A DNA stretch of 27,805 nucleotides, taken from IMG/VR virus record IMGVR_UViG_3300024336_000041, positions 1-27,805 of that record. The stretch is one strand, 5' to 3'. The DNA comes from a virus. Shown here piece by piece: positions 1 through 24,369 of the stretch. The first letter of the stretch is position 1. Each line of letters begins with the position of its first letter. The position numbers and the translations under genes are program-made. The notes beneath the pieces were generated by a model, which had not been told where the DNA came from, did no database searches, and saw only the letters and a program-made list of their open reading frames with translations.

Positions 1-1265
1 ACAATAAAGTTAGCACCACCACGAAGTGTTTTCTGATGGATTGCATTAGAAACACTCTGTAGTTTGTTACCTAATGTCTGGAACCAAGTTCCCTTGGTGT
101 ATGCAGATGCATTAGCTGAGGACTCTGCGAACAACTTAGTTGTCGAATTGTACTCATAAGCAGGGCGAGCAGACCAGTACTCTGTCTTTGCTGAAGCGTT
201 AACTTTAAGCATGTCAAGAATTTCAAGGTCGATTTCCATCGTGATATACTCTGACAACATAGCAGTCAATTCAGCCTCGGCGTCTACTGAGTGATATGCG
301 TTTAAATCTTGAGCAAGTTCAGGTGTCCAAACAGCTTTCAATTTACGAGTTTTAGCAACGATAGGGATGCTCTTCATTTTGATGTCGATTTCAGGAATAT
401 CAACATCGTCTGCACTGTTAGGTGAAGGTACGGTGAAGGTAGTCTGTTCGAAATCACCACGAGTAATGTCCGTAGGCAACTTGTGGTATTTAAGTGTTAA
501 TGAACCGGAGAATGCGCCTGAGCCTGCAGGGTCTACGATAAATGAAGCACTTGTTGCAGTTACGCTTGTGTACGCTGGGTACATAGCTGTAACCTGTGTT
601 GCAGTAGCACCGACAAGACCTGAACCTGAAATTACGAAAGCTCTTACGCCATCCCAATCAGCATCAGATGTTTGTCCTCTACCAAAGGAAACCTTGAAAA
701 GGTTGCTAAGGCTTGAAGATAGTGCGGCGTCAAATTCAACATCTTCCCAAACAACGGAAGCAGATGACCAGCTACCATCGGCGATAGTGTCAGTTGTGTC
801 ATTGATGGTATATCCAAATTTACCTGCGCCGTAAAGACCGCCTGTAGCATCACCCGAAGATGAAGTGTTACCATAAATGTCAGTGTTAGTTGTGAATCCA
901 GCCTGTGCAGTTCCATACTTGAAATCCAAGTAGAAAATAAGACCTGAAGGCAGGTTCATTGGTTGTACAGAAACGAATTCCTGTGCGGCAAGTTCGCCGA
1001 AAATACGACGTACAAGCGGTAATGCTACACCACTCCACTCTTCCGAGTTTGATGCTGTACCAGTTTTTGAAGATTCATCAATAAGCTGACGTGCTTGGTT
1101 CTCAAGCAAGACGGCCATATTGTTAACGGCATTATCAGATGCCAAACCTTCAAGAAGTCCAGTTGGTTCCCATTTCCCAACAAGAGCTTTAGATTCCTCT
1201 AAGCGTCTGCGTTGTGGGGAATAGCCTTCCATTAGACTTTCAATTGTGTTCATTGAATTACTCAT
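1..1265 (-). CDS. 23: Major capsid protein, T4 gp23-like (C-terminus outside window)
   Basis: This gene builds the hexamers of the head shell. About 421 codons are visible, open to the window edge, so the C-terminus is missing. The middle reads like T4-type gp23: TRKLKAVWTPELAQDL, then HSVDAEAELTAMLSEYI and MEIDLEILDM. The N-terminal region has KWEPTGLLEGLASDN and NMAVLLENQARQLI, as in T4-like marine phages. LLE39 before G40 fits the gp21 cleavage rule and could be where the N-terminal arm is removed (LME13 before G14 is an alternative). The start is ATG at 1265, preceded by AGGAGAACTTAA. It lies 14 bases downstream of the scaffold gene, the usual gene 22-23 order. No in-frame TGA occurs in the visible part. 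Identity rests on remembered family motifs; I am confident of it. Confidence 0.95.
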   Translation of the reverse strand, partial: MSNSMNTIESLMEGYSPQRRRLEESKALVGKWEPTGLLEGLASDNAVNNMAVLLENQARQLIDESSKTGTASNSEEWSGVALPLVRRIFGELAAQEFVSVQPMNLPSGLIFYLDFKYGTAQAGFTTNTDIYGNTSSSGDATGGLYGAGKFGYTINDTTDTIADGSWSSASVVWEDVEFDAALSSSLSNLFKVSFGRGQTSDADWDGVRAFVISGSGLVGATATQVTAMYPAYTSVTATSASFIVDPAGSGAFSGSLTLKYHKLPTDITRGDFEQTTFTVPSPNSADDVDIPEIDIKMKSIPIVAKTRKLKAVWTPELAQDLNAYHSVDAEAELTAMLSEYITMEIDLEILDMLKVNASAKTEYWSARPAYEYNSTTKLFAESSANASAYTKGTWFQTLGNKLQSVSNAIHQKTLRGGANFI

Positions 1266-1279
1266 TTAAGTTCTCCTAA

Positions 1280-2431
1280 TTACTTTTTAATGTTAGCTAA
1301 CCGTTGGTAGCGTGCCTTAAGGTCAACATTTTCCTCTAAGATATCAGTCTTAGGTTTTGTAGATGTGACAGGCTTTGAAGAGCTACTTTGTGGTTTTCTA
1401 ACTGCTTTTGTTTCAACGATTTTTTTAGCTTTTGCGCCAAAGGACTCTGCGATTGTTGAGAAAATTAATTTCACTTCACGTAGATTCTTTGCACGGTCAA
1501 AAGTTTCAACAACTTTATATTTCTTCTCATTGTCAAGTTCAAAGGAACGGAACAATTTGTTAGTATAAAGAAGTTTTGAGTTAAGAAGGTTGACTTCATT
1601 GATTTTGCTACGCAAGAATTTGATAACTTTGATATGCTCTTCAAGGTCGGCTTTCAATTGAACATTTTCCAGTTCAAATTCAGCTTCTTCTTCGTCAGCT
1701 TCTTCATCTTCATAGTCATCATCTTCACCGATTAACTGGTTGATAAGTTCCTGAAGGTCAACATCTTCGTCCATGTCATCTTCGTCGTAGTCATCTTCTT
1801 CTTTTAATTTAGCTTTACCAACTGTGCCGATGCCGGAACTCTGATTGGCCTTTCCAGGCTGTTTGTTATCAGATTTTCCAATATCAGATGAAACGTCATT
1901 TTCGTCAATTTCTTCGTCATCGTCAACATCAAAGTCTAATTCTTCGTCGTCTTCTTCGTCAAGGTCTTCAGATTCCTCAAAATCTACTTCCTCTTCGTCG
2001 TCGTCTTCTAAATCAGCTTCAAGCTCTTTAATGGTTGCTTCTAAATCCAATTCGTCTTCCTCTTCTTCGTCTTCAGCTTCAAATTCGTCTGCGGCTCCGT
2101 CGAATGCACCTTCGTCATCTTCAAGGTCTTCTTCACCTTCTTCAAACTCGATTTCTTCTTCATCATCACCAGCAAATTCATCTTCACCTTCTTCGGGTTC
2201 GACTGCGATATCTTCCTCGCCGCCTTCTTCGTCCTCAAAAGCTTCTTCCTCTTCGTCTTCTTCAAAGTCATCATCTTCATCAATCTCGGACTGAATCTGT
2301 TTTGCTAACATTGCTTTAACGTGTGGATTGAAGGCTTCCTCAAGGGCGATTTTTGCATTTTCAAGTGCGGTCTCACGGACTGCTCGTGCGTCTGCAATGG
2401 CTTCCTTTAATAGGTCGTCTTTTACTTCCAT
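1280..2431 (-). CDS. 22: Prohead core scaffold protein, T4 gp22-like, with a very acidic middle
   Basis: Probable main scaffold of the prohead core, around which the capsid protein assembles and which the prohead protease later degrades. The 383-residue product begins MEVKDDLLKEAIADARAV, then an ALEEAFNPHVKAMLA helix typical of T4-like scaffolds. Residues about 50-250 are almost entirely Glu and Asp with few hydrophobics. The C-terminal third is a helical, likely coiled-coil region (FLRSKINEVNLLNSKLLYTN) similar to marine T4-like gp22, then a Ser/Lys/Thr-rich linker and basic tail. The start has GGAGAAACACA before ATG and the stop is TAA. It lies directly upstream of the capsid gene. The acidic centre is much longer than in T4 gp22 (about 270 residues). 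The Ser-rich frame on the other strand is a shadow of the acidic codons. Confidence 0.88.
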   Translation of the reverse strand: MEVKDDLLKEAIADARAVRETALENAKIALEEAFNPHVKAMLAKQIQSEIDEDDDFEEDEEEEAFEDEEGGEEDIAVEPEEGEDEFAGDDEEEIEFEEGEEDLEDDEGAFDGAADEFEAEDEEEEDELDLEATIKELEADLEDDDEEEVDFEESEDLDEEDDEELDFDVDDDEEIDENDVSSDIGKSDNKQPGKANQSSGIGTVGKAKLKEEDDYDEDDMDEDVDLQELINQLIGEDDDYEDEEADEEEAEFELENVQLKADLEEHIKVIKFLRSKINEVNLLNSKLLYTNKLFRSFELDNEKKYKVVETFDRAKNLREVKLIFSTIAESFGAKAKKIVETKAVRKPQSSSSKPVTSTKPKTDILEENVDLKARYQRLANIKK

Positions 2432-2667: not shown

Positions 2668-3003
2668 TTATTTATAAGTATTTGCAGGTTTTATGTACTT
2701 TTTGTACTTTTTGAATCAATTATCAACATCTTCTTTGGTTTTTCCATTGAAATATGTCGCACCCGTCTCATAATCATATGACCCATATGATACTGCAATA
2801 TCTTGATGTCGGTGGTTCTTGTCAAGATGTTCATATGTCTTATAGCTCATTGCCATTGGCTTTGGTGTCATTCTATACGACCCATTGCGTAATGTAACTG
2901 TGAGCTTGATTGGAAATTTATCTTTAATTCCCCAAGACGCTTCACCCTCATTCAAGCGTTGAATCTCTTCCCTAATTATTTGTCGCAATTCTGATTTCTT
3001 CAA
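2668..3003 (-). CDS. Probable internal head protein with capsid-targeting N-terminus
   Basis: Function of the body is unknown. It begins MKKSELRQIIREEIQRLNE followed by GEAS; LNE19 before G fits the T4 gp21 cleavage rule, so I infer packaging into the prohead and removal of the first 19 residues. The mature part is small, with strand-like stretches (IKLTVTLRNGSYRM) and a Tyr/Gly-rich region. The codon at 2716-2718 is TGA. Read as Trp, the frame continues as VDNWFKKYKKYIKP to TAA at 2668, giving 111 residues, and the added tail has normal coding character. It is the last gene of the island before the terminator. The packaging role is inference from the N-terminus and the context. Confidence 0.8.
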
Positions 3004-3088
3004 TGTTATTTATCCTATTTTTTATTTGAGTTATCCAGCATATTTGGGCCTGCTTCATCTTCCGTTATTTTGTTATATTTGTGATTTT

Positions 3089-3400
3089 TTAGAATTTTTG
3101 AACACCCTTAGCAAATTTTTTCATATGGCTAACTTTAATACCACTATCAGTATCAGTAAATGCGAGTTTGATATTCTTTACAGACTTATCATTGTAATTT
3201 TTAACCGATATTCGCCTTTCCAATGCTTTAATAATATCCGTGGACGATTTACCATAATACTTTGTAAGTTTTAAAACGTCGGGGTGCGTTTCCAATTCTT
3301 TATTAAACAACCCCAAAGCATCTGGTGGGGCATCTACCTTTGCTTCATTCAATCTCTGGAGTTCTTCCCTAATAATCTGTCTTAATTCTGATTTTTTCAT
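3089..3400 (-). CDS. Probable internal head protein with capsid-targeting N-terminus
   Basis: Starts MKKSELRQIIREELQRLNE followed by AKVDAPP; LNE19 before A is a canonical gp21-type cleavage site. The 103-residue product would mature to about 84 residues. It has a predicted helical centre (LGLFNKELETHPDVLKLTKY) and a basic C-terminus ending FAKGVQKF. I chose the ATG at 3400, where the shared motif begins, over an upstream start four codons earlier that would overlap the preceding gene. The preceding gene ends at 3402, so the two are adjacent. No known domain was recognised. Confidence 0.8.
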   Translation of the reverse strand: MKKSELRQIIREELQRLNEAKVDAPPDALGLFNKELETHPDVLKLTKYYGKSSTDIIKALERRISVKNYNDKSVKNIKLAFTDTDSGIKVSHMKKFAKGVQKF

Positions 3401-3401
3401 A

Positions 3402-4157
3402 TTATTTCCCATGCTTTTTGAACAGTACCCATGTCATATTGACAAGTGGCGCCAATTTCAATTTATTCATATGCTGTTTATTCTTATCCGAAATTGCGTC
3501 GTATAGCGCAACAACATGCTGTGCTGTAAATGCATCAACCAATTGTCCACCAATTTTTTTTGCTTGGTGTCTATCAACAATATCACGCATTTGAGTTATT
3601 ATTTTGGACTCTTCGATTTCTTCAGTGATAGATTCATTTAATTTTAATACGCCCATTTTGATTAACTCATCTCTTGCAAACTCTCGGTCTACAGAATCAC
3701 CATCAAACCTATGTTTTGGTCGCTTGCTTAACACTTTAACAACCGCCTGTTGAACTTGCAATTGGGTGAGGTCTTTTTTCTTTAAATTTGGATATGTTCC
3801 TTTTTTACCATAGAACATATTCATATACTCGGTAAAATCCTTGAAATCTTCGGTAATGATTGCTTCACCAAGAGCTTTACGCCCCTTTGAGGTTGCCATG
3901 TCACTCATTTGTTTTGCATTTGCAAAGTCTTTCCATGATTCCTGCCAATTTGAATGTGGTCTGGGATTTTCCTTCGTGGCATATTTAACCCACCATTTTC
4001 GTACCATTTCAATCTTCTTATAGTCACTCTTTCCGATAAGAGTAGCAATAGTTCCGGAAGATAAATCGTAAATTTCACGTTCAATTTCTTTAGTGGATAG
4101 CTTCTTTTCGGTTATCAATTCTTCTCTAATGATTTGTCTCAATTCTGATTTTTTCAT
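3402..4157 (-). CDS. Large internal head protein, two modules behind a targeting peptide
   Basis: A 251-residue protein, one of the largest of the family. The N-terminus MKKSELRQIIREELITE is followed by K, so the first likely cut is ITE17. A second site-like stretch, VLKLNE followed by SITEE, lies near residue 175. After it comes a compact helical module (ITQMRDIVDRHQAKKIGG, then LVDAFTAQHVVALYDAIS) that resembles a short C-terminal module I recall from other phage virion-associated proteins. The first module is Trp-rich (RKWWVKYATKE, NWQESWKDF) and unrecognised. The stop is TAA, and the start overlaps the TAA of nothing else but abuts the stop of the gene starting at 4399 (TAATG at 4157 in the other direction). 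The module resemblance is from memory and should be taken as moderate. Confidence 0.78.
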   Translation of the reverse strand: MKKSELRQIIREELITEKKLSTKEIEREIYDLSSGTIATLIGKSDYKKIEMVRKWWVKYATKENPRPHSNWQESWKDFANAKQMSDMATSKGRKALGEAIITEDFKDFTEYMNMFYGKKGTYPNLKKKDLTQLQVQQAVVKVLSKRPKHRFDGDSVDREFARDELIKMGVLKLNESITEEIEESKIITQMRDIVDRHQAKKIGGQLVDAFTAQHVVALYDAISDKNKQHMNKLKLAPLVNMTWVLFKKHGK

Positions 4158-4399
4158 TATTTCTCAACCTTTCCAAGTACGGTTAAAAGTTCACCAATAG
4201 CCAATTCGTCGTTTTCTACTCGAACAACTGCCTTGGTAACTCGGTCAGCGATTGAAGATGCATACGCACGTAATTTTTTATTTTTAGAATATTTGGTTAT
4301 AACATCTTGAATTTCTGCGTATAATTTAACGCTTAAATCTTTGCTTGCCTCGTTCAGCAATTCTTCTTTAATCATCTGTTTCAATTCTGATTTTTTCAT
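4157..4399 (-). CDS. Small probable internal head protein
   Basis: An 80-residue product that starts MKKSELKQMIKEELLNE followed by ASKD; LNE17 before A fits the cleavage rule. The mature part is about 63 residues, mostly helical and charged (VKLYAEIQDVITKYSKN, then RVTKAVVRVENDELAIG). The stop TAA shares a base with the ATG of the next gene (TAATG), suggesting coupled translation. The start at 4399 places the shared motif at the N-terminus; AGGG upstream is a weak ribosome binding site. No known domain was recognised. Confidence 0.8.
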   Translation of the reverse strand: MKKSELKQMIKEELLNEASKDLSVKLYAEIQDVITKYSKNKKLRAYASSIADRVTKAVVRVENDELAIGELLTVLGKVEK

Positions 4400-4401
4400 A
4401 T

Positions 4402-4656
4402 TTATCACCCTATGGTTATACTACCGCTGTTGTCAACGCCCAGCCATCTGAATTCTTTATGCTTCATCAATGTAGCCAATTCTTTTTTATCAAATCTATT
4501 TGCAAAGCCCTTATCACCACCGATTATTAATCCATGGACGCCTTTAAACGCATATTTAGGCTTTAATCCAATAATTTTCAAAATTTTTAATTTATCTGAC
4601 GGGACTTCCGACAACTTTATTTCATCCGCCTCGTTAAGCTCACCTCGATTCGCCAA
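4402..4656 (-). CDS. Internal-protein gene with its targeting start lost (possible chimera)
   Basis: The body (GELNE followed by ADEIKLSEV, then KILKIIGLKPKYAFKGV) is a typical family member and keeps the LNE-before-A site. The frame upstream still encodes PRQIIREEL (to about 4680), so the second half of the targeting peptide is present, but the MKKSEL part and its ATG are missing. The same DNA is instead the 3' end of the preceding gene, which stops inside it at 4668. A TTG at 4656 is the only usual start and would make a protein without the peptide. At the 3' end, TGA then TAA follow Gly; with TGA = Trp the protein ends in ITIGW. Either a defective gene or one made from an unusual upstream start. 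Confidence 0.6.
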
Positions 4657-4667
4657 CTCTTCTCTAA

Positions 4668-4862
4668 TTATTTGCCTTGGTCATGTAAATAGTTTGTACT
4701 TCCGGCGTCTTTCAGAAATTTAATACGAGCATCCATAGCTGTTTTAGTTTTTGCTATCAAATCAGTATATGATTTTTTAACAGTCTTAGCCCACGCAGAT
4801 TGCTCCTCAGTTACTGCTTGGATTTCCTCCCTAACAATTTCACGTAATTCTGATTTTTTCAT
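4668..4862 (-). CDS. Small internal-protein gene, 3' end fused into the next gene
   Basis: A 64-residue product that starts MKKSELREIVREEIQAVTE followed by EQSAWAKTV. The targeting region is conserved, but the site would be VTE, not I/L-x-E, so cleavage is less certain. Its C-terminal part (TAMDARIKFLKDAGSTNYL) is a clear paralogue of the gene at 11360-11572 (KAMDARIKQLSNAGNSDYS). That paralogue continues for about ten more residues, whereas this one ends abruptly (HDQGK, TAA) inside the relic targeting sequence of the next gene. This suggests truncation by recombination. The start at 4862 has GGAGAATAAG in front of ATG. Confidence 0.72.
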   Translation of the reverse strand: MKKSELREIVREEIQAVTEEQSAWAKTVKKSYTDLIAKTKTAMDARIKFLKDAGSTNYLHDQGK

Positions 4863-4872
4863 CTTATTCTCC

Positions 4873-5181
4873 CTATCCTCCAAACCTACTATTAGCTCAT
4901 ATCAAATCATGTAATTTATGATACTCGCGTTGTTGTTTCGCTGATATTTTTACAGTTTTTAACGGACTGAATATTTTCATGCTGTCACTATTCTGTTTAA
5001 ATAAATTCATCATTTTCTTTTCATTTTTATCAACGGCAATTACTTTTTTCAAGTCGCGTGATACTATTATCCAATAACCAGATTTTCTCATATCTTGCGC
5101 CTTTTCAATTGATATAATTTCACGTTCATTCAAAGTCTGAATTTCTTCACGTATGATTTGACGTAATTCTGATTTTTTCAT
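4873..5181 (-). CDS. Probable internal head protein with targeting peptide
   Basis: Starts MKKSELRQIIREEIQTLNE followed by REIIS; LNE19 is in place, though Arg follows instead of the usual small residue. The 102-residue product has a short alternating segment (SGYWIIVSRDLKKVIAVDKN) and a basic helical tail. The frame has a TGA after HDLI; read as Trp it continues WANSRFGG to TAG at 4873, just before the ribosome binding site of the next gene. Spacing to both neighbours is tight. The function of the body is unknown. Confidence 0.78.
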
Positions 5182-5190
5182 CGTATTTTC

Positions 5191-5382
5191 CTATCGTTTT
5201 ACAATCATTGCGTTGATACCGTCTTTTTCAACGGATTTTTTAAAATCTTTGGCGTCCTTTTCGTCTTTATATTCGGCTGAAGCTGGCTTCTCACCTTTCT
5301 TTCCAAAGATAACAACTCACTTGACTTCATTCAGTGCCTTGATTTCCTCACGTATAATTGCTCGTAATTCTGATTTCTTCAT
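5191..5382 (-). CDS. Small internal head protein, visible only with TGA = Trp
   Basis: A 63-residue product starting MKKSELRAIIREEIKALNE followed by VK, then TGA (5317-5319, codon 22), then VVIFGKKGEKPASAEYKD and ending NAMIVKR, TAG. Read as Trp, the segment KWVVIFGKK is a sensible start of a small alpha/beta domain. With the standard code only 21 residues would be made. The motif, the tight fit between the neighbouring genes and the terminal TAG all support one intact gene. The function of the mature peptide of about 44 residues is unknown. Confidence 0.82.
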
Positions 5383-5396
5383 AGTTAGTGCATCAC

Positions 5397-5591
5397 CTAC
5401 TTTCCTATATCGGCTGTGCGATATTTTTCACGAAGGCGGGCAATTGCTCTTGCTTTGCGTCGCTGTTCGGATGGTTTTGTGTATTGCTCACGTTCTCTCA
5501 ATTCAATAAATATCCCTTGGTCTTTCATTTGACGTTTGAGTATCTGAATTGCTTTTTCGATGTTGCCGTTAATCACTTTTACTTTTACCAT
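5397..5591 (-). CDS. rpsU: Ribosomal protein bS21
   Basis: A phage copy of the small-subunit protein bS21, which sits near the mRNA exit site and the anti-Shine-Dalgarno region and affects initiation. The 64-residue product starts MVKVKVINGNIEKAIQILKR and continues with the family's basic helical part (IELREREQYTKPSEQRRKAR, then AIARLREKYR). Length and the Arg/Lys-rich pattern with the Tyr-x-Lys-Pro signature fit bS21 (about 58-71 residues). The start at 5591 is set by GAGGTAAAC just upstream; a longer frame from 5669 overlaps the preceding gene and adds non-homologous residues. It has no targeting peptide although it lies inside the internal-protein island. bS21 genes are known in large phages. 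Here it may help phage mRNAs compete for ribosomes (inference). Confidence 0.92.
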   Translation of the reverse strand: MVKVKVINGNIEKAIQILKRQMKDQGIFIELREREQYTKPSEQRRKARAIARLREKYRTADIGK

Positions 5592-5619
5592 GTTTACCTC
5601 TTTTGTTTGTGTTGGTTTA

Positions 5620-5883
5620 CTAATTATTAATATATGTATTCGAGTAATTTGCCCAATCCTCAAATGCATTTAAGATGTCCGCTACACCAGATTCCGTAGA
5701 ATCCGAATATTTATCATTCAATTTTTTGATTTCTTTTTTTCCTCAGTTTTTAATTGGACCCTTAGATTTATATTGCTGTACCAAATCCTTTTTATATTTC
5801 TCTGCATCTTTTTTAGCGGATGCAAGTGTCGATTCTTTCAGCAACTCTTCTCTAATAATTTGTCTTAATTCTGATTTTTTCAT
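5620..5883 (-). CDS. Probable internal head protein, one in-frame TGA
   Basis: An 87-residue product starting MKKSELRQIIREELLKE followed by STLAS; LKE17 before S fits the cleavage rule. The body is helical and charged (AKKDAEKYKKDLVQQYKSKG), then IKN, TGA (5743-5745, codon 47), GKKEIKKLNDKYSDSTESG, and a C-terminal stretch with a normally encoded Trp (NAFEDWANYSN) ending in TAG. Without recoding the gene would stop half way. Its ATG overlaps the TAA of the upstream gene (TAATG). No known domain was recognised. Confidence 0.82.
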
Positions 5884-6677
5884 TATCTGTTCCCTAAATG
5901 AGACTTCTTGCTACTGAAGTCGATATTGATTACATATACTTCCCGCTTCTGATTTCCTGGAAGCTCTACTTTTATGACCTTCATTTCGTCCTGCGTATTT
6001 ATTGGTTCCACCAATTTAACAAGCTGTCTTTTCTTAATCCACTGTGCTTTAGGAAAGTGCTTCTTAAGACTTTTTGGAGTTGGGTCTACAGCTATCCAAT
6101 CATGTTGTTTTGCTGTCATCTCCGTTATCATCTCTCGGATGATTTGTCTGACGATACTCTCCTGTAAATTTTTTGATTCCAAGTGTTCGATATATTTTTC
6201 AGCATATCGCTGTTCACGTTTGTAGGATGCATTTTCGCTTTTCTTCTTAAGAGATTTTGGCATCTCTCGACACTCTTCTTCGGACAGCCCGTGGTTGTTT
6301 ACGAAATATGAAATTCTGCGGGAGTCCACAGAATAATTCTTCCTCCACTTGTTTTCAGGAAGTCTCTTGAACCATGAATTTACTTCTTTTACTGTTGTAC
6401 GCTTGCCCTTCATGCTATTCTCCTGTCATGCCGCCTTTAAATCATTTTTGTAATTCAACCAATATGCCGGTCTCAAATCTTCCTCAGAAAGTTCATAAAT
6501 TTTATGATTTTCCTCTGACTTAACTTTTACTATACCGAATTGCGGTCGCCCCAATATTTTGAATGGTGCCATAGCAACTTCCTTGGACATTTTCAATTTA
6601 CGCATAAATGCCTTCTTGAATTTGTCTTTGATTTTAATCAATGACCCAAGTTGTAGTTTTTCATCAAGTGATTGCAT
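5883..6677 (-). CDS. Unknown protein with an internal targeting-like segment; joined across a TGA
   Basis: With TGA (6426-6428) read as Trp, two frames join into one 264-residue protein: residues 1-83 (MQSLDEKLQLGSLIKIKDKF onward) and a second part starting after AAWQENS with MKGKRTTVKEVNSWFKRL. The second part contains, mid-protein, ESIVRQIIREMITE followed by MTAKQHDW, a close copy of the targeting/cleavage motif of the neighbours, and ends with a strand-rich module (EVYVINIDFSSKK). A GGAG lies six bases before the ATG at 6413, so the second part could also start separately. I favour the joined form because no gene here shows a proven TGA stop, but the choice is open. The internal motif could be a second cleavage site or a trace of a gene fusion. 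Confidence 0.62.
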
Positions 6678-6680
6678 TTA

Positions 6681-6929
6681 CTATCCTAAATATGGTTCCA
6701 CGAACCCAAGCTTTTCCACAGTTTTCATGTACGCATCTAAAGCCTTTTCCATCTTTTTGGCATGTGCATCATGTTTTTTATCCCATTTTTCAGATTTTTT
6801 CATTTTCTTAATAAACTTCTCAAATAGCGAGTATGTCTTGGTATAATAATCATCCAAATCTAAGCCCGCATCTGACCGTTCCTTTAAAAGCTCTTCTTTA
6901 ATCATTTGTCTTAATTCTGATTTTTTCAT
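6681..6929 (-). CDS. Small helical probable internal head protein
   Basis: An 82-residue product starting MKKSELRQMIKEELLKE followed by RSDAG. LKE17 keeps the I/L-x-E core, with Arg after it. The mature part is one long Lys-rich helical stretch (KTYSLFEKFIKKMKKSEKW, HDAHAKKMEKALDAYMKTV), suggesting a DNA-binding or condensing role like other basic internal head proteins (inference). The ATG at 6929 overlaps the TAA of the upstream gene (TAATG); the stop is TAG. Confidence 0.8.
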   Translation of the reverse strand: MKKSELRQMIKEELLKERSDAGLDLDDYYTKTYSLFEKFIKKMKKSEKWDKKHDAHAKKMEKALDAYMKTVEKLGFVEPYLG

Positions 6930-7138
6930 TAGTCGTCCCATCCGCCTTTTTCGGCCATTTTAACCAATTTGTCCCATTCTCCACCCATGGACTTTTTAAC
7001 TTTTTTCCATGCTGTTTTGTCGGTGCGTTCGATGGTTCTAAAATACTTATATAGCTGTTCCCAATTAGGTTCCAAATTTATGGTTTTAAATTCTGAAATG
7101 ACCTCTTTAATTACTTGTCTTAATTCTGATTTTTTCAT
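6929..7138 (-). CDS. Small basic probable internal head protein
   Basis: A 69-residue product starting MKKSELRQVIKEVISE followed by FKTINLEP. ISE16 fits I/L-x-E, but Phe follows, so the exact cut is uncertain. The body is rich in Lys and Trp (EQLYKYFRTIERTDKTAWKK, then WDKLVKMAEKGGWDD). Both ends overlap the neighbours as TAATG, which suggests coupled translation through 7138 and 6929. No known domain was recognised. Confidence 0.78.
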   Translation of the reverse strand: MKKSELRQVIKEVISEFKTINLEPNWEQLYKYFRTIERTDKTAWKKVKKSMGGEWDKLVKMAEKGGWDD

Positions 7139-7992
7139 TATATGATTCCATTCTCTTTGAATTCATCGGTTAGCTTAAATTTTTTCGCCACTTTTTCAAA
7201 ATGCATTTGGGCGTCAAGTACTTCTTGCCAACTCATGGATTTATTTGAAAATTCATGTTGCCAATCCATTGCTTGGTCGCTTGCCTCACCTGCCGTTTTT
7301 GGCATCTTCAATTTTGCCTCTTTAATCATCCGTGGCAATTTGGACTCATTTTTAGCTGAATAGTTCTTATCAATATAATTGTAGAATGCTTTTTTCTTGT
7401 CGTCATCCAAGTCATCTGGGGAACTAACACCAAATTTCTTCATAGCTGATTTGAAAAATGCTTGATACTTACCATCATTCTCTTTGACCTTTTCTTTGCT
7501 GATATCATCCTTTTCAAAGAATGCACCCTCTTCATTCAATTCATTAATGTCATAGTACCGGTTTAATATGTGTCCCATATCTTCAAATACTGATTCCATG
7601 CGCTGTTGTAATGAGGTTGCCTCATTGGCAATTTTTGAAAATTCTTTGGCATGGTTGCCCAAGGATTTCATATTTTTATTAACAGTAATTTTGTCAAAAT
7701 TATTCTCGGTTTCACGCAATGTGTGGTCCCGTGCAATTTCCGCCATCTTTGACAGCTTCTCTGCGATTTCACTCAAGTCAGTTTCACGATAAATTGATTT
7801 GCCAATTTCGTTATATCTACCGACTTCATTCACGAACTCTTTCATATCATATTTTGGCGCATCGTCTTCTTTGTAGAAATCTTCTGCTACAAGGTCTGAT
7901 AGTTTGCTTGTGCGGAATTTACCGAACGCTTGTGTTGGGGCGAATCCACCAGCAATTGTCATCTCGTCTAATCTATTTTTCTTTTTACTCAT
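7138..7992 (-). CDS. Large virion-core candidate with a KKFGVxSPxxL module
   Basis: A 284-residue protein starting MSKKKNRLDE followed by MTIAGGFAPTQAF. It lacks the MKKSEL sequence, but LDE10 could be a cleavage site. Residues about 150-215 form an acidic/basic helical module (YQAFFKSAMKKFGVSSPDDL, then KKAFYNYIDKNYS) of a type I recall from virion structural proteins of large T4-like phages. It is preceded by INELNE followed by EGAF, another possible cut. The remainder is helical with heptad-like patterns. The stop is TAA overlapping the next ATG. It sits among the internal-protein genes, so a core or internal head role is likely, but the function is not recognised. Confidence 0.72.
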   Translation of the reverse strand: MSKKKNRLDEMTIAGGFAPTQAFGKFRTSKLSDLVAEDFYKEDDAPKYDMKEFVNEVGRYNEIGKSIYRETDLSEIAEKLSKMAEIARDHTLRETENNFDKITVNKNMKSLGNHAKEFSKIANEATSLQQRMESVFEDMGHILNRYYDINELNEEGAFFEKDDISKEKVKENDGKYQAFFKSAMKKFGVSSPDDLDDDKKKAFYNYIDKNYSAKNESKLPRMIKEAKLKMPKTAGEASDQAMDWQHEFSNKSMSWQEVLDAQMHFEKVAKKFKLTDEFKENGII

Positions 7993-7995
7993 GGT

Positions 7996-8310
7996 TTATC
8001 TCCCGTATTGTGCATCTATTAATAATTTACTTGCAGATTCTAAAAGCTTTATGGCAGATTTAATGCCCTTCATTGCCTTTGCGGCTCTTGCCTTTTCTTT
8101 AGTATCATCGTCATTATCCCACCCTTTACTTACATGTGGTTTAATTTTTTTTAATCTGGCAATCATCTCTGGTATAGTGGCCTCACCAAAATCCTCAACA
8201 GCCCAACCGTCTTCCGGTTTAAATATGTCTTCGCTCACTGTCTGTCTGATTTCAGTCAATCTCCAGTCACGGAACTTTTTGTTCATTTTCATTATGTCTG
8301 TGTTTTTCAT
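7996..8310 (-). CDS. Unknown small protein of the internal-protein island
   Basis: A 104-residue product starting MKNTDIMKMNKKFRDWRLTE. The start at 8310 is set by AGGAGATGATT in front of ATG; an ATG two codons upstream has poorer spacing. LTE followed by IRQTVSED is the nearest match to a cleavage site. The rest is acidic/helical (EDFGEATIPEMIARLKKIKP, then GIKSAIKLLESASKLLID). The stop is TAA. It lies in tandem with genes for probable head proteins, and no independent function is visible. Confidence 0.68.
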   Translation of the reverse strand: MKNTDIMKMNKKFRDWRLTEIRQTVSEDIFKPEDGWAVEDFGEATIPEMIARLKKIKPHVSKGWDNDDDTKEKARAAKAMKGIKSAIKLLESASKLLIDAQYGR

Positions 8311-8319
8311 AATCATCTC

Positions 8320-9789
8320 CTATGACATGTAATGACCACGCATGTGCGCTCTTGGTGGTAGGTCTATTTCGTTTTTAGCGGTCTTCCAATAATGGTCTGC
8401 CGCTTTTTTAATTTGTTTCTTTGCAGATGATGACAATTTCTTGTCATAATATTTAATTTCATGCTTGTTGTAATGTGCACTTATATGGGCTACCTTCTTG
8501 TAGTCCCCGTGCTCTTCACGGCTTCTATCAAATACGGTTATTCCGTTTCCAAGATGTCCAAAGCCCAAATCTTCACCTTCCAAAAATACAGCCTCGGATT
8601 TGCGACCGAACAACATCTTTTTGACTGCACGGATTGCATCCATGGGTCGCTTGAACATTTTTGGAGCCTGATTCAATTTTTCACCGGTATCTGCTACCGC
8701 ATAATATATTTTAACATTATTGTACGGCATTGATGCGAGCTTTATATTGAAATCTCTAAATTTTACAGTGTCCACAATCTTTTCGCCTTTGAAATTCCAA
8801 TCCCATGCTATTGAGGCTTCATTAACGCTCTCGTTCTTTGGAGTATATGTTTTATAATACATGGTATCATTCACAAGTTTATAATCTCCAGTTTTCAAAA
8901 GTTTATTTACAACACCATCAATAGATTTCTTGACATTCTTAAGTCCTTCACTATCTAAAAAAGAAGCAAGGTCTTTCAGGGACACGCCTGTATATGCTTT
9001 ATTATGAATTAAATTTGAAGCTTTCCACGAATACGCATCTTTACCAAATTTACCAAATTTTGCACCCTCATTGGTTTCTTTCTTCAACCGGCTCTTTTCT
9101 TTACGACTGCGGTTCTTATTTTCGGATTCGAATCCAACTATTTTTCCACCTTTATGAGAAGCGTCTTTTTTGTCCCCGTTGCCGTATGTACCCTTGTCAC
9201 GGTTGTATTGATTTAGCTCAGCACGATATTTTTTAGCTTTGGTGGACGATTGATATTTTTCGTAGTAATCACCCTTTCGTGCTTGATATTCTTTTGCGTA
9301 ATCCCTGTCTTTAGCCTCATCTACTGATTCGCCCCAGTAACCAGGAGAAACATCCATTCTACCGGATGGCTCAGTCCACGTAAACCCAGTTATGGTTTTT
9401 CTAAAATTGGGAACTTTCTTTTTAACAGCGTGCGCTCACTGGTCAAGTGTAGATTGACTCAAATTAGTTTTCATTACCAATTTATTGTCATATATTTTAT
9501 AGCCATTCTTCAAGCGCAGTGTTTTTGCAAACTTGTCCACAATTTTATCGTATTTATCGGCTTTACCCTCAGACATAATCTCATTATGAATCAACGCACG
9601 GACAATTTCTTCCTTGCTAACTTTATCCGGCAACCCCTTTGTGCTGGTTGATGCCATATCAGTAGCATCATCATCAGAAATGTTGTTTGCTATATCTTTA
9701 ACTTTTTGGTCAACTTTATCGTTCTTGCCATCCTTGTAGGCTTTGACAATTGCGAATAATTTCTGTTGTTTTTTACTGACTGCTGGCAT
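8320..9789 (-). CDS. Multi-module probable virion protein, joined across a TGA
   Basis: With TGA at 9436-9438 read as Trp, one protein of 489 residues results. It begins MPAVSKKQQKLFAIVKAYKD, a short helical start shared with many phage proteins (DUF3008-like). The join reads STLDQWAHAVKKKVPNFRK, and the ATG that would start the second half alone (9357) has no ribosome binding site. Further on come a Lys/Tyr/Arg-rich low-complexity part (about 180-260), a small domain after NESVNE followed by ASIAW, and, after AVFLE followed by GEDLG, a C-terminal module (GNGITVFDRSREEHGDYKKV) of a kind I recall from other phage proteins. The repeated (V/L)-x-E junctions suggest it may be cut into several peptides. 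The stop is TAG. Confidence 0.75.
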
Positions 9790-9803
9790 TTATTTTTCCT
9801 TAT

Positions 9804-10241
9804 CTAATTAAAGCTTCTATATCCTATTTCATCCTCTAACATTGGAAATGCTTTTTTACTTTTAAACTGAAATGAATCTTCTGGGTCACCAGATTTACTT
9901 GCTAAGTCTGTATATGAAACGGTAAAAAATGGTTTCAATATTGCTTTCAACTTTGCAGTTTGTTTGGGGTCACTAATTACATCCAAATACAGTTTACTAT
10001 CACTATTTTCAATGCTCGCATCCAAATCTACCCCTTTTAATTTTTGACCTTTTTTTGCGGCGGCTATTGCGTTTTTAAATTCTGGAATTTCCTTTTGAAG
10101 TTTCGCCAATTTTTTTACTTCATCTTCCGTTTCTTTCAAATCGCTCAAAACGTTTGCAAAATTGGTTTCATTTAATGGCCGTTTCCCCTTGGAAAATCGT
10201 CCCCAGTTTTTGTCTATTGATTCGTATAATTCTCTTTTCAT
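9804..10241 (-). CDS. Probable internal head protein, second N-terminal class (ELYESIDKNW)
   Basis: A 145-residue product starting MKRELYESIDKNWGRFSKG, then RPLNE followed by TNFANVL. The start at 10241 is set by AAGGAG six bases upstream. The first 13 residues are paralogous to the gene at 11577-12152 (MNKELYESIEKN-TGA). Here the aligned Trp is TGG, which makes this gene the internal control for reading TGA as Trp. PLNE may be the cleavage site. The body has a Lys-rich helix and an acidic, strand-rich C-terminal half (LYLDVISDPKQTAKLKAIL). The stop is TAG. Function unknown. Confidence 0.78.
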   Translation of the reverse strand: MKRELYESIDKNWGRFSKGKRPLNETNFANVLSDLKETEDEVKKLAKLQKEIPEFKNAIAAAKKGQKLKGVDLDASIENSDSKLYLDVISDPKQTAKLKAILKPFFTVSYTDLASKSGDPEDSFQFKSKKAFPMLEDEIGYRSFN

Positions 10242-10251
10242 GTTAAACTCC

Positions 10252-10569
10252 TTATTGGTCATGTATTTCTATTGTTATTTCATAAAGTACGTCAGAACCG
10301 TGGCCGTCATCAGCATATACTTCAAGTTTGCTTGTACCGTTTCGTCCAGAATATTCATTTTCCAACGCATCTTTGCCTCAGATTTTTGTTGCCATTTTTA
10401 CTATACCGTTATGAAGCTTTTCAGCATCGGTGCTTCAAGGATATTTACGCTCTTGAAGAGTTTTATTAGCATGAGCCGCTGTTACGTCTGTAATGGTCGC
10501 CAATGGTTGTCCAAACTCATGGTCTCATGCGTGCTCACTTAATAAATCTTTTAATTTTGTCTTTTTCAT
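10252..10569 (-). CDS. Probable internal head protein with three in-frame TGA codons
   Basis: Found only when TGA is read as Trp. The 105-residue frame starts MKKTKLKDLLSE followed by HAWDHEFGQPLATI (first TGA at codon 15, 10525-10527). It continues ERKYPWSTDAEKLHNG (codon 45) and MATKIWGKDALENEYSG (codon 64), and ends EVYADDGHGSDVLYEITIEI, TAA. The N-terminus is a variant of the MKKSEL peptide with LSE12 as a possible cut. AGGAG precedes the ATGs (10572 or 10569); I chose 10569 for better spacing. It fills the gap between two neighbours exactly. The C-terminal half looks like a small beta-rich domain; no family was recognised. Confidence 0.8.
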
Positions 10570-10578
10570 CATGGTCTC

Positions 10579-11088
10579 CTAAAAGTTGGTGGTCAATTCA
10601 ATAGAGGTTTTGGCGTTTCCCCAAAATCCACGTTGGCGTGTTAATTTATATCGTTTAACCATTTGCTTAACATATTTTTTAGCATCCGGCTCGTCATCAA
10701 AAGATTTACGTTCAAGCGTTTCATCTTTGGCGTTCTGGGAATATTTCCCAGCTACCTTTTCAATTGTAACAGTAAATTTGGCTTTAGCTTCTCCAAGTCG
10801 AGGCGGCGATGATTTCCAATTATAGTGTTTATCTACCCAACCGTATACATCATCTTCGGAGACTTTTTTGCCTGCCTTACGTTCAAGCTGTTTCCAGTAT
10901 TTAACCAGTTGAGCTTTTCGCTTGCGAACGTGTGATGCCGAAGCCTCTCCATCTTGGTGCAAATTCTCGGGTTCAAGTGCCATTAGCGTCCCAACAAACA
11001 ATTCTTTGAGCTTATCTGAAATATCTTTAGCTTCTAATATTTTAGTTATCTCTTCTCTAATAGTCTGACGTAATTCTGATTTTTTCAT
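10579..11088 (-). CDS. Two-module internal head protein with targeting peptide
   Basis: A 169-residue product starting MKKSELRQTIREEITKILE followed by AKDIS; ILE19 before A fits the rule. The first module (to about residue 105) is helical and basic (VRKRKAQLVKYWKQLERKAG, then DDVYGWVDKHYNW). A second possible site, PRLGE followed by AKAKF, precedes a strand-rich module (FTVTIEKVAGKYSQNAKD, then KTSIELTTNF). This layout suggests one precursor giving two packaged peptides (inference). The stop is TAG, directly in front of the AGGAG of the next gene. No enzyme motif is visible. Confidence 0.8.
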   Translation of the reverse strand: MKKSELRQTIREEITKILEAKDISDKLKELFVGTLMALEPENLHQDGEASASHVRKRKAQLVKYWKQLERKAGKKVSEDDVYGWVDKHYNWKSSPPRLGEAKAKFTVTIEKVAGKYSQNAKDETLERKSFDDEPDAKKYVKQMVKRYKLTRQRGFWGNAKTSIELTTNF

Positions 11089-11090
11089 CT

Positions 11091-11360
11091 CTATCTGCCA
11101 TACTTTGTTTTCATAATTGTGTCATTAATCAATCGGTCGATTTCAGACCATGCGCTTTCCCATGTATCTTCCATATCTTCAATTGGAAGTTTTGCTCGGA
11201 CTTTATCTTCAATTTCTTGTTGATTAGCATATGGTGAGTCTTTCATCACTTTGGCCACGGTTTTTTTAATCATATTTTTGTATTTGACGCCGATGGTACG
11301 GGCTTCATTCAATGACTTAATTTCTTCCCTAACTATTTGTCTTAATTCTGATTTCTTCAT
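11091..11360 (-). CDS. Small probable internal head protein
   Basis: An 89-residue product starting MKKSELRQIVREEIKSLNE followed by ARTIG; LNE19 before A is canonical. The mature part of about 70 residues is helical (VKYKNMIKKTVAKVMKDSP, then EDTWESAWSEIDRLINDTI). The start at 11360 overlaps the TAA of the upstream gene (TAATG) and matches the shared motif; a longer frame to 11408 only runs into that gene. The stop is TAG. Confidence 0.82.
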   Translation of the reverse strand: MKKSELRQIVREEIKSLNEARTIGVKYKNMIKKTVAKVMKDSPYANQQEIEDKVRAKLPIEDMEDTWESAWSEIDRLINDTIMKTKYGR

Positions 11361-11572
11361 TATTTCCCTTTCGACGCATCTTGTTCTAACAATGCCAATT
11401 TGCGCCACATTGAATCAGATGAATAGTCGGAATTTCCAGCGTTTGATAATTGTTTAATACGAGCATCCATTGCCTTTATAATCGCATCGGCTGTCGCTTT
11501 GCTATCTTTTTTGTCATATGTAGCTTCGTTAAGCTCTTCTCTTATCATTTGTCTTAATTCTGATTTTTTCAT
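11360..11572 (-). CDS. Small probable internal head protein, paralogue of the gene at 4668
   Basis: A 70-residue product starting MKKSELRQMIREELNE followed by ATYDK; the peptide is shorter than in most copies, with LNE16 before A. The C-terminal half (IIKAMDARIKQLSNAGNSDY, ending LLEQDASKGK) is the full-length form of what is cut short at 4668-4862. The stop TAA overlaps the next ATG. Function unknown. The paralogy shows that genes of the island arise by duplication of both peptide and body. Confidence 0.82.
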   Translation of the reverse strand: MKKSELRQMIREELNEATYDKKDSKATADAIIKAMDARIKQLSNAGNSDYSSDSMWRKLALLEQDASKGK

Positions 11573-11576
11573 TATA

Positions 11577-12152
11577 CTAATCCTTATCTACTATTTTTAT
11601 TTTTGGTAATATACCAGAGAAAAATCCTCGCTTTGGCATGGGTTTTGAAAATCATTTTATAGCTTCTTGTTTATATTTTTTAAGACTGCCCTCTACTGCA
11701 TTTTTTAATTTAAGTCTTTGGACTCCTATTTCATGTTTATCGCTTTCTCCATATCCGCTTTCCAAAGAAAATGTTTTATCTTTCCATGGCTTAGTTTGGG
11801 ACATATCAGGACTTTTTTTGCGTAAATAATCTATAAAGATTTTTGACGGTGCCTTTGGCTCCAATCACGCATGGATGTCAAGTGAATTGCGCAGTCCGCT
11901 TTTTAGCCTGATAGTAAATGCCACAATCAACATTTTGTTCCCAATATCATATTTTGCAAACACGGAACGGTCCGTGTTAGGACTGTATTTATAAATTTTC
12001 GTGGTGAATCCTTGCTTTATGGCATTTTTATTCGTCAACTCCGTATAATTGTCCAAAACGTCCCGAATGTTGGTTAGCTCGCTCAATACAGTGGCCTCAT
12101 TAACAAACTCTGCTCAATTCTTTTCGATTGATTCGTATAATTCTTTATTCAT
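11577..12152 (-). CDS. Probable internal head protein with three in-frame TGA codons
   Basis: A 191-residue frame seen only with TGA = Trp. It starts MNKELYESIEKN, TGA (codon 13, 12114-12116), AEFVNE followed by ATVLSEL. The paralogous N-terminus at 10241 has Trp (TGG) at exactly this position. Further TGA codons are at codon 96 (11865-11867, SLDIHA-W-LEPKAPSK) and codon 167 (11652-11654, QEAIK-W-FSKPMPKRG). It ends LPKIKIVDKD, TAG. VNE18 before A resembles a cleavage site. The middle is strand-rich (MLIVAFTIRLKSG). With the standard code this would look like two short frames. It lies just downstream of the protease that would process it. Confidence 0.85.
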
Positions 12153-12155
12153 TGA

Positions 12156-12767
12156 CTATCCCCTGATAATATCGTTAATAAGTGATTCTACTTTACACCA
12201 CTTGCCACATGTTCTATCTTCAACCTCATGCTCCACGCCCTCTTTCATTGGGTGTAAAAATGCACCGTGGGTGGATGGGTTGCTTACAAAATCAAATGCA
12301 ATCAACTCAAAATCATCCTGAACCTCTTGTGCATCACCATTGGCTTCACTTTGTTGTACAGAACCGAGACCTCTTGATGAAATGCCCAATTTAATTCCGG
12401 CTTCAAATAACTTGCGCAATATGTTTCCGGACGGGGTTTCAAGTATCTCAACTGTTCCAACCAAGCTGTCACCCTCAAAGTGCATCTCGGTAATATTATG
12501 TGATACGTTCTGCAGGTTGACTACTGAGCTATCGGGGTGGTCTAATTCACCCATGGCACGTTTCTGTGCAATGAAGTTTTTGTGGTAATTTTTTGATTCA
12601 CGAGCCAAAATATTCATTGGATAGACTCTACCATTTTGATTTTTGGAGTCCGCCCTTTGAAGTACGCCCTGAACCAGCAATCGTCCGCCGTGCTCTTTTT
12701 TAGATTCGTTAATTTGTTTTTGGGTAAACTCGAATGGTAGGCAATCTACTATAAGTTTTCTATCCAT
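12156..12767 (-). CDS. 21: Prohead core protease, T4 gp21-like
   Basis: Serine protease of the prohead that cleaves scaffold, capsid protein and internal proteins at I/L-x-E sites. The 203-residue product carries MGELDHPDSSVVNLQNVSH with the probable catalytic His (about residue 77), and GIKLGISSRGLGSV with the probable catalytic Ser (about 130-131), then FELIAFDFVSNPSTHGA. These match the T4 gp21 / herpesvirus-assemblin-like prohead protease family, and the length is near T4 gp21 (212). The start is ATG at 12767 with AGGAG eight bases upstream; it overlaps the end of the upstream core gene. The stop is TAG. Its substrates are presumably the many LNE-bearing proteins encoded immediately downstream. 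Confidence 0.94.
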   Translation of the reverse strand: MDRKLIVDCLPFEFTQKQINESKKEHGGRLLVQGVLQRADSKNQNGRVYPMNILARESKNYHKNFIAQKRAMGELDHPDSSVVNLQNVSHNITEMHFEGDSLVGTVEILETPSGNILRKLFEAGIKLGISSRGLGSVQQSEANGDAQEVQDDFELIAFDFVSNPSTHGAFLHPMKEGVEHEVEDRTCGKWCKVESLINDIIRG

Positions 12768-13290
12768 GAACGCTCTCCTTTTCAAAATCTTGTGCGTATT
12801 TGAGTGCTAATTTCGCTCGCTCTTTTTTTGGAAACATTATATTCCACTGTCCGCTGTTCTGTTTTGCATATCGAATTGCACCTTGTTCAACAAAATACAA
12901 AAATGGTTTTAATGCGTGTGATAATGTAAATTTTCCTTTATCCACCATCCCATAAAGTTGTTTGATAATCGGCAATTTGATAGCTTTTCTCATTTGAGCG
13001 TTATCATCAATAAATGCTTTTAAATCTTGCAAGTCATCTGATAGCGCAATGTCTGCTTCGTATAATTTTGCTATATGTTTACTGTTCTTTTTAACTTTTT
13101 TATAGTCAAACACCTCTGGGTCTTTATGACCATTGGCATGACCTGTTTTTTCTCGTTTTTTATTTGAGCCAAATGCGTGTGGAGTTTGATACTGACCCTC
13201 GCCGCCGTCAATGTTGCCGGTTGCGTTGGCTTCCTCTATCTCGGATTGAATTACACTCCGTACAAGACGACGTAATGCCTTATTGTCCAC
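12760..13290 (-). CDS. Probable prohead core protein upstream of the protease
   Basis: A 176-residue product, starting at GTG (13290) with GAGGGG upstream: MDNKALRRLVRSVIQSEIEE followed by ANATG. This N-terminal helix ending in IEE before A is another likely core-targeting/cleavage sequence. A Gly/Lys/Asn-rich linker follows, then a helical C-terminal half (KAFIDDNAQMRKAIKLPIIK, then ALKPFLYFVEQGAIRYAKQN). Its place just before the protease gene corresponds to the small core genes (67, 68) of T4, but I cannot equate it with either. It overlaps both neighbours by a few bases. The stop is TAG. Confidence 0.65.
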   Translation of the reverse strand: MDNKALRRLVRSVIQSEIEEANATGNIDGGEGQYQTPHAFGSNKKREKTGHANGHKDPEVFDYKKVKKNSKHIAKLYEADIALSDDLQDLKAFIDDNAQMRKAIKLPIIKQLYGMVDKGKFTLSHALKPFLYFVEQGAIRYAKQNSGQWNIMFPKKERAKLALKYAQDFEKESVHG

Positions 13291-24359: not shown

Positions 24360-24369
24360 TATACCTCTC

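What the first reader, a model, noticed from the sequence alone, without database searches (positions are those of the whole stretch)
2668..12152. A 9.5-kb island of proteins sharing a capsid-targeting peptide inserted in the T4 head operon
Seen: 13 genes in this interval (plus one at 20038) begin MKKSEL, usually extended to RQIIREE and followed within 20 residues by L-N-E or similar with A/G/S after it. Known: T4 internal proteins carry N-terminal targeting peptides cut by gp21 at (I/L)-x-E before A/G/S, and genes 21, 22 and 23 normally lie close together. Here the island sits exactly between protease and scaffold. Inference: a large, diversified set of internal proteins, packaged and probably injected, of which the mature bodies are mostly novel. 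They are candidates for anti-defence or host-takeover effectors, or DNA-packing proteins.
Basis: partly seen in the sequence, partly recalled or inferred. Interest (0 to 1): 0.9.

Follow-up and report, generated by a model that had tools for sequence, protein, structure and literature searches.

The report
Shared head-targeting tag on phage cargo
A T4-like phage carries a block of 13 small, mostly unknown proteins that share one short N-terminal tag ending in a head-protease cutting site, which makes them very probably cargo loaded into the virus head, as in phage T4 but with a new tag, many more bodies, and bodies that swap tags and positions exactly at the cutting site.

Summary
In detail: 13 genes in the interval and one at 20038 begin (M/L)KKSEL, all 13 between an S77 prohead protease and the scaffold/capsid genes. 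It is not chance: tag codons are under protein-level purifying selection (pN/pS 0.145), and the tag recurs on 120 non-redundant proteins in 108 body families, replicated in 71 further loci (90 proteins, 81 families). After the tag only a Glu is conserved; [LIVM]xE starts at residues 13-22 in 108/118 proteins, about 10% elsewhere. The capsid protein carries the same I-x-E|[AS] site. Tagged bodies reappear behind unrelated tags or inside longer proteins with the junction at such a site (32/39 contexts, 22% expected). One lineage's prohead-core protein has this tag itself. Best reading: a capsid-targeting peptide for a large, modular internal-protein repertoire cut by the gp21-type protease. Packaging, cleavage and injection are inferred, not shown; effector versus DNA packing is open. 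Corrections: relatives fill the same slot with other tags, so it is an expanded standing slot, not a unique insertion; and this lineage reads TGA as Trp, so several genes are longer. New variant of the T4 internal-protein/CTS system.

The parts
3..1265 (-). major capsid protein (gp23-like, cut by contig end); predicted cleavage LIDE64|S65
   Evidence: PDB match to T4 gp23 E 4e-14; conserved LI[DKQTRS]E|[AS] at residue 60-66 in the MCPs compared, T4 site E65|A66
1280..2431 (-). gp22-like acidic scaffold; many (L/I)xE sites (MEVKDDLLKE|A...)
   Evidence: position between island and MCP, acidic composition; site density 1.76 per 100 aa in scaffolds versus 0.35 in tagged bodies
2668..3003 (-). tagged gene, TTG start, LKKSELRQIIREEIQRLNE|GE, 111 aa with TGA=Trp
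3089..3400 (-). tagged gene MKKSELRQIIREELQRLNE|AK, 103 aa
3402..4157 (-). tagged three-module gene MKKSELRQIIREELITE|KK, 251 aa; modules 2 and 3 recur in other proteins after (I/L)xE
4157..4399 (-). tagged gene MKKSELKQMIKEELLNE|AS, 80 aa
4402..4680 (-). decayed tag copy, PRQIIREELANRGELNE|AD; start codon uncertain (TTG 4656)
4668..4862 (-). tagged gene MKKSELREIVREEIQAVTE|EQ, 64 aa
4873..5181 (-). tagged gene MKKSELRQIIREEIQTLNE|RE, 102 aa (TGA=Trp)
5191..5382 (-). tagged gene MKKSELRAIIREEIKALNE|VKW, 63 aa (reads through TGA)
5397..5591 (-). phage bS21 ribosomal protein inside the island
   Evidence: PF01165 E 5e-13
5620..5883 (-). tagged gene MKKSELRQIIREELLKE|ST, 87 aa (TGA=Trp)
5883..6677 (-). 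two-part gene (TGA=Trp) with an internal tag-like stretch VRQIIREMITE|MT
   Evidence: (TGA aligns to W in 11/11)
6681..6929 (-). tagged gene MKKSELRQMIKEELLKE|RS, 82 aa
6929..7138 (-). tagged gene MKKSELRQVIKEVISE|FK, 69 aa; body recurs as an internal module in L029/L030
7138..7992 (-). conserved head-island protein of the group; C-terminal module after LPRMIKE|AKLKM is a stand-alone tagged protein in L086
7996..8316 (-). gene with tag type C (MNKKFRDWRLTE|I)
8320..9789 (-). 489-aa multi-module gene (DUF3008 plus further modules; TGA=Trp); sites E74, E158, E324, E404 all in predicted low-confidence linkers
9804..10262 (-). gene with tag type C (KRELYESIDKNWGRFSKGKRPLNE|T)
10252..10572 (-). gene with tag type B (MMKKTKLKDLLSE|H), three in-frame TGA
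10579..11088 (-). tagged gene MKKSELRQTIREEITKILE|AK, 169 aa
11091..11360 (-). tagged gene MKKSELRQIVREEIKSLNE|AR, 89 aa
11360..11572 (-). tagged gene MKKSELRQMIREELNE|AT, 70 aa
11577..12152 (-). gene with tag type C (MNKELYESIEKNWAEFVNE|ATV), 191 aa with three TGA=Trp
12156..12785 (-). prohead (head maturation) protease, gp21-like
   Evidence: PF03420 E 3e-27; 335 relatives in IMG/VR
12760..13290 (-). prohead-core-type protein (T4 67/68 position), LRRLVRSVIQSEIEE|ANATG...TPHAF
   Evidence: position and conserved N-terminus; homologue in L197 carries the MKKSEL tag itself
19200..19616 (-). gene with tag type B (MKLTSLITE|GG)
19616..20038 (-). outlying tagged gene MKKSELRQMVREEILNE|AP, 140 aa

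Best explanation
MKKSELRQIIREE...(L/I)xE is a capsid-targeting propeptide. Step 1 (inferred): the 16-20-residue, predicted-helical tag docks each protein onto the prohead core, by the same contact that the N-terminus of the group's own core protein uses. Step 2 (inferred, strong sequence support): during head maturation the S77 protease encoded next door cuts after the (L/I)xE Glu, freeing the mature body inside the head, as it cuts the capsid protein at I-x-E|[AS]. Step 3 (inferred): the freed bodies, mostly small and in this lineage very basic, stay with the packaged DNA, and some or all enter the next host with it. The repertoire evolves by swapping bodies and modules between tags, with the protease site as the joint. 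Which bodies are anti-defence or take-over effectors and which are DNA-packing proteins is not known.
For: Tag with unrelated bodies: 120 non-redundant proteins, 108 body families; in the first alignment the only conserved columns are the tag and E19. Replication in loci not used before: 90 proteins, 81 families, [LIVM]xE start at 13-22 in 72/85 versus 6-12 in later windows. In the main set 108/118 versus 9-15/118; P1' is A/G/S in 47% versus 19% background. Protein-level selection on the tag: pN/pS 0.145 with pS 0.65, upstream DNA only 33% identical. Same site type in the capsid protein at the T4-equivalent position. Tagged bodies in other contexts have the site at the mapped junction in 32/39 (22% expected, p 3e-15; 11 of 13 bodies). 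The prohead-core protein of L197, two genes upstream of the protease, begins MKKSELKQIIKEELKKALQKE|MSTTG, and core proteins of the group often begin with an LRxLIRxE..EE|[AV]ST pattern. In a 140-kb relative the tags lie only in the first 40 kb, with the structural genes. Internal sites are at background density in tagged bodies (0.35 per 100 aa, control 0.33) but abundant in scaffold (1.76), so bodies should survive the protease. Bodies pI 9.4 versus 5.2 control, p 3e-11. Precedent: T4 propeptides MKTYQEFIAE|A (ipIII), a 19-aa one ending TITE|A (ipI), MAKINELLRE|S (gp24); the first 10 residues of IPIII suffice for incorporation into the head (PMC9026906).
Against: No virion proteomics or N-terminal sequencing for any member was found; packaging, cleavage and injection are all inferred. 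P1' is A/G/S in only about half. Tag A does not align with T4 CTS sequences by eye. High pI is not seen in the second set (median 6.9), so basic bodies may be lineage-specific. No body has a recognised anti-defence function.
Confidence: 0.85

Rival explanations
1. The tagged proteins are extra prohead-core (scaffold-like) parts: they dock through the tag, help shape the core, and are then chopped up and leave, so no mature cargo remains.
For: The core protein's own N-terminus has the tag or its pattern; genes sit between protease and scaffold; T4 gp67, gp68 and gp22 are degraded by gp21 (PMC5694885).
Against: 91 of 118 bodies have no strict internal site and the density equals that of unrelated proteins, against a five-fold excess in scaffold; core parts would be expected to be conserved, but 120 bodies fall in 108 families.
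Confidence: 0.1
2. The tag is kept for recombination or expression (a shared 5' end that eases gene swapping or translation) and has no protein-level role.
For: T-even internal-protein genes are highly diverse around a conserved CTS (PMC3012670); many start codons overlap or abut preceding stops in a tightly packed operon.
Against: Synonymous sites are near saturation while residues are kept, and upstream DNA is not conserved; junction swaps keep a Glu at P1 behind unrelated tag sequences.
Confidence: 0.03
3. The bodies are packaged but are DNA-condensing internal proteins only, not injected effectors (a rival on function, compatible with the targeting reading).
For: Very basic bodies in this lineage; T4 internal-protein lysines contact DNA phosphates (PMC3012670).
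Against: Packing alone does not call for about one new body per protein; diversity of this kind is what IPI/IPIII-type counter-defence predicts (PMC3012670, PMC9391042); the second set is not basic.
Confidence: 0.3

Closest known systems
T4 internal proteins IPI, IPII, IPIII and Alt with capsid-targeting sequences (Mullaney and Black; reviewed in PMC9026906)
   Same: short N-terminal propeptide ending (L/I)xE, shared by unrelated bodies, S77 protease in the same phage, small and (in this lineage) basic bodies; tag length 16-20 is close to ipI's 19 residues
   Different: different tag sequence, 14 copies in one 28-kb stretch, located between genes 21 and 22 where T4 has nothing, near one body family per protein, and exchange of modules at the cleavage site
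T4 gp24 propeptide MAKINELLRE|S
   Same: tag type B of this phage group (MAKLKDLLKE, MIKLKDLLxE, MKLTSLITE|G) has about the same length and pattern
   Different: tag B sits on many unrelated proteins, not on a vertex protein
Long propeptides and ejection proteins of SPN3US and phiKZ (PMC5694885)
   Same: head-protease processed inner-head proteins; two paralogues (gp53, gp54) with identical first 15 residues but 34% identity overall
   Different: propeptides there are mostly over 100 residues and few proteins share one

Membership tests
T4 internal-protein / capsid-targeting-sequence (CTS) system | N-terminal propeptide of about 10-20 residues ending in (L/I)xE | tested here: met
   [LIVM]xE start at residues 13-22 in 108/118 and 72/85 proteins, about 10% elsewhere
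T4 internal-protein / capsid-targeting-sequence (CTS) system | same propeptide on proteins with unrelated mature bodies | tested here: met
   120 proteins, 108 families; replication 90/81
T4 internal-protein / capsid-targeting-sequence (CTS) system | gp21-type S77 prohead protease in the same phage, with the capsid protein bearing the same site | tested here: met
   PF03420 E 3e-27; MCP site conserved
T4 internal-protein / capsid-targeting-sequence (CTS) system | propeptide homologous in sequence to a T4 CTS | tested here: inconclusive
   tag B resembles gp24/ipIII propeptides by eye; tag A does not; sequences too short for a statistical test
T4 internal-protein / capsid-targeting-sequence (CTS) system | cleavage after the Glu in vivo | not testable with these tools
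   only indirect: conserved Glu and junction mapping
T4 internal-protein / capsid-targeting-sequence (CTS) system | mature protein found inside the virion and injected | not testable with these tools
   no proteomics for any tagged phage was found
T4 internal-protein / capsid-targeting-sequence (CTS) system | small basic bodies | tested here: inconclusive
   met in the window's lineage: 13 of 14 window bodies at pI 8.8 or more, lineage median 9.4 versus 5.2 control; not seen in the second set of tagged proteins, median 6.9
T4-like head operon | gene order terminase, portal, core protein, protease, scaffold, capsid | tested here: met
   terminase and portal by tblastn from Mel-JY01 and immuto

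The most novel reading that the evidence does not exclude
The group builds its virion cargo as shuffled modules, single or strung together, whose joints are prohead-protease sites: the maturation protease turns tagged single-module and multi-module precursors into an array of small proteins inside the head, and phages exchange bodies at those joints behind at least three interchangeable tags, one of which is the core protein's own N-terminus.
Probability: 0.5. Interest if true: 0.82.

Novelty: new variant of a known kind. Interest (0 to 1): 0.72.

Why it matters
It would give a direct route to new counter-defence proteins and a new cargo-loading peptide, and it would show how a T4-type phage diversifies cargo by exchanging bodies at protease sites.

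Tried and rejected
Near-DNA match to cultured phages: none. Tag as tblastn query in cultured phages: none, too short; only one tag-like start in Flavobacterium phage immuto, none in Microcystis phage Mel-JY01. Pfam, PADLOC and PHROGs scans of the tagged proteins: only DUF5661 and DUF7678 are clear Pfam matches, scattered weak PADLOC matches, no named function. IMG/VR searches for relatives of three window bodies: none for two, one identical copy for the third. Fold search of two models: no significant PDB match; VIA-align Z under 5, a weak PUR/dsRBD-like resemblance of one domain is not relied on; BFVD's single match below E 0.001 is an uncharacterised phage protein. The truncated-peptide reading of the 5382 gene was rejected after finding TGA=Trp. 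Amphipathic-moment test of the tag helix: not better than shuffles (p 0.10). Host from MAG binning: only Flavobacteriales and Pelagibacter MAG contigs with 46-70% identical proteases; not conclusive. No held paper contains MKKSELRQ or MKKSELKQ.
Full report
1. Observation. The 27.8-kb window is a fragment of an uncultured virus. All genes of interest are on the minus strand, in the order terminase, portal, a conserved gene, a prohead-core-type gene, S77 protease, island, gp22-like scaffold, gp23-like capsid protein. Thirteen genes between protease and scaffold and one at 20038 begin (M/L)KKSEL, as reported. In T4 the interval between genes 21 and 22 is about 30 bp; here it is 9.7 kb.

2. Gene models. 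Three observations showed that TGA is read as tryptophan: an ORF at 10572-10252 with in-frame TGA where relatives have W or F, the split portal (NLWP-TGA-VRNLCKYGD against NLWPWIRNLCKYGD in Mel-JY01), and the apparently truncated tagged ORF at 5382. Aligned to relatives, TGA positions face W 411 times, far more than any other residue; of the 29 aligned columns 11 have W as the majority, and several of the others are upstream of the real start or poorly aligned. In terminase, portal and capsid genes no in-frame TAA or TAG occurs in any locus; in-frame TGA occurs only in a subset that includes the window, and there mostly at W. Under this code all complete window genes end in TAA or TAG, though that call treats TGA as sense by construction. 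The island then has about 22 genes.

3. Is the tag real? Among the 14 window tags pS is 0.65 and pN 0.094 over the first 13 codons, and the 30 bases upstream are 33% identical: the peptide is kept, the DNA is not. The back-translated pattern has no match in 84,980 cellular genomes, 46 stretches in viral contigs for one spelling and at least 119 for another, where the scan stopped. With the right code, 120 non-redundant tagged proteins fall into 108 body families. In the first alignment of 103 proteins the columns conserved at 90% or more are K3, S4, L6, I10, E13 and E19, with M1, K2 and E12 invariant. E19 is the putative P1 residue.

4. The site. [LIVM]xE starts at residue 13-22 in 108 of 118 proteins and in 9-15 of 118 in later ten-residue windows; P1' is A/G/S in 47% against 19% background. 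With standard-code translations the strict [LIVM]xE[AGS] was in 47 of 118, against 10.5 for shuffles. Loci fetched afterwards, and not used to set up the test, give 72 of 85 against 6-12. The capsid protein of the same phages has L-(I/V)-x-E|[AS] at residue 60-66, where T4 gp23 is cut (the mature chain is 65 residues shorter than the full one).

5. Junction test. If the Glu is a real joint, a tagged body found elsewhere should follow another such site. For 13 tagged bodies there are 39 distinct contexts without the tag; 32 have [LIVMF]xE ending within three residues of the mapped boundary, against 22% of positions in the same proteins (p 3e-15). Caveat: 22 contexts come from one module (GRYHDWRND...), where every context has E at P1; counted by body, 11 of 13 agree. 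Examples: EIKILLNE|GTRS against an unrelated tag in NDYILTE|GTRS; EIQKLTE|GQVKIWKS against internal KEGLTE|GQVKIWKS; RLNE|AKLK against internal PRMIKE|AKLK in the window's own 7138-7992 gene. AlphaFold2 models agree: in the 489-aa protein 8320-9789 all four strict sites (E74, E158, E324, E404) lie in segments with pLDDT under 50 that join better-predicted domains; in 3402-4157 the tag is a helix (residues 3-18) ending at the site. Both models have modest overall confidence (mean pLDDT 62 and 67).

6. Link to the core. In locus L197 the core-type protein begins MKKSELKQIIKEELKKALQKE|MSTTGDVAGFETPNAF; the next gene (131 aa, MKLSKYVKRLSE|NSF) looks like the relative of window 7138-7992, and then comes the protease; two further tagged genes stand upstream. 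Elsewhere the core-type protein often begins with LRxLIRxELxE|[AV]STT-like sequence, the pattern of the tag. This suggests, but does not prove, that the tag copies the core protein's docking segment.

7. Fate of the bodies. Strict sites occur in bodies at 0.35 per 100 residues, like unrelated proteins (0.33), and in scaffolds at 1.76. So bodies should survive a protease that shreds the scaffold. Bodies in the TGA-recoded lineage have median pI 9.4 against 5.2 for other proteins of a 140-kb relative (p 3e-11); the second set has median 6.9. In that 140-kb contig tags occur only in the first 40 kb, with the structural genes.

8. Relatives. Phages at 65-75% protease identity mostly lack MKKSEL but have 3-9 kb between protease and capsid gene, with a 10-residue tag M(I/A)KLKDLLxE and an NKxW tag. 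The strict site starts in residues 5-24 of 35% of these island proteins against 7% of control proteins. So the slot and its logic are probably older than this tag.

9. What is known. T4 internal proteins carry 10-19-residue CTS propeptides; ten residues of IPIII suffice for incorporation, and gp21 removes the propeptide (PMC9026906). T-even internal proteins are a diverse defence set around a conserved CTS (PMC3012670); IPI blocks a restriction enzyme and IPIII is needed on one wild E. coli strain (PMC9391042). The present system works like that one. It differs in tag, number, place and modularity. I file it as a new variant; membership in the strict sense (demonstrated packaging and cleavage) could not be tested.

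10. Confidence. Targeting/processing tag on internal proteins: 0.85. Bodies persist in the virion: about 0.75. At least some are injected effectors: about 0.55, resting on analogy and diversity only.

Noticed in passing
window 16281, 17636-18050, 10380, 6428 and others; 140-kb relative (L141-L148), L007, L026-L028, L087, L090, L093, L112: This T4-like lineage reads TGA as Trp (code 4) throughout a 140-kb relative. ARAGORN finds no tRNA-Trp(UCA) there, which hints at a host that itself reads TGA as Trp or at an undetected tRNA. Many but not all MKKSEL contigs are recoded.
   Followed up: partly
window 5397-5591: Phage-encoded ribosomal protein bS21 inside the head island; in relatives it stands just before the scaffold gene.
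   Followed up: no
window 24848-26296, 24370-24840: A CCA-adding/poly(A) polymerase-like enzyme (PF01743, PF12627, HD) starts MLKLTELLLE|GR and a neighbour MLIKLMALVE|AK: type B tag-like N-termini, one on a recognisable enzyme.
   Followed up: partly
window 23088-24413: NUDIX domain fused to DUF5661; DUF5661 also matches one tagged protein elsewhere.
   Followed up: no
window about 9070-9325 (within 8320-9789); many relatives: A very conserved basic module (SSTKAKKYRAELNxYNRxKGTYGNGDxxDxSHxGGKIVGFE) is shuffled between otherwise different island proteins.
   Followed up: partly
L088, L061, L074 and about 20 other loci: Module GRYHDWRND...PKQKIGRSM follows many unrelated sequences, always directly after a Glu.
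   Followed up: partly
L223 (on a 292,723-bp contig) and other L156-L226 loci: The tag also occurs on a contig of jumbo-phage size, so it is not limited to the window's lineage.
   Followed up: no
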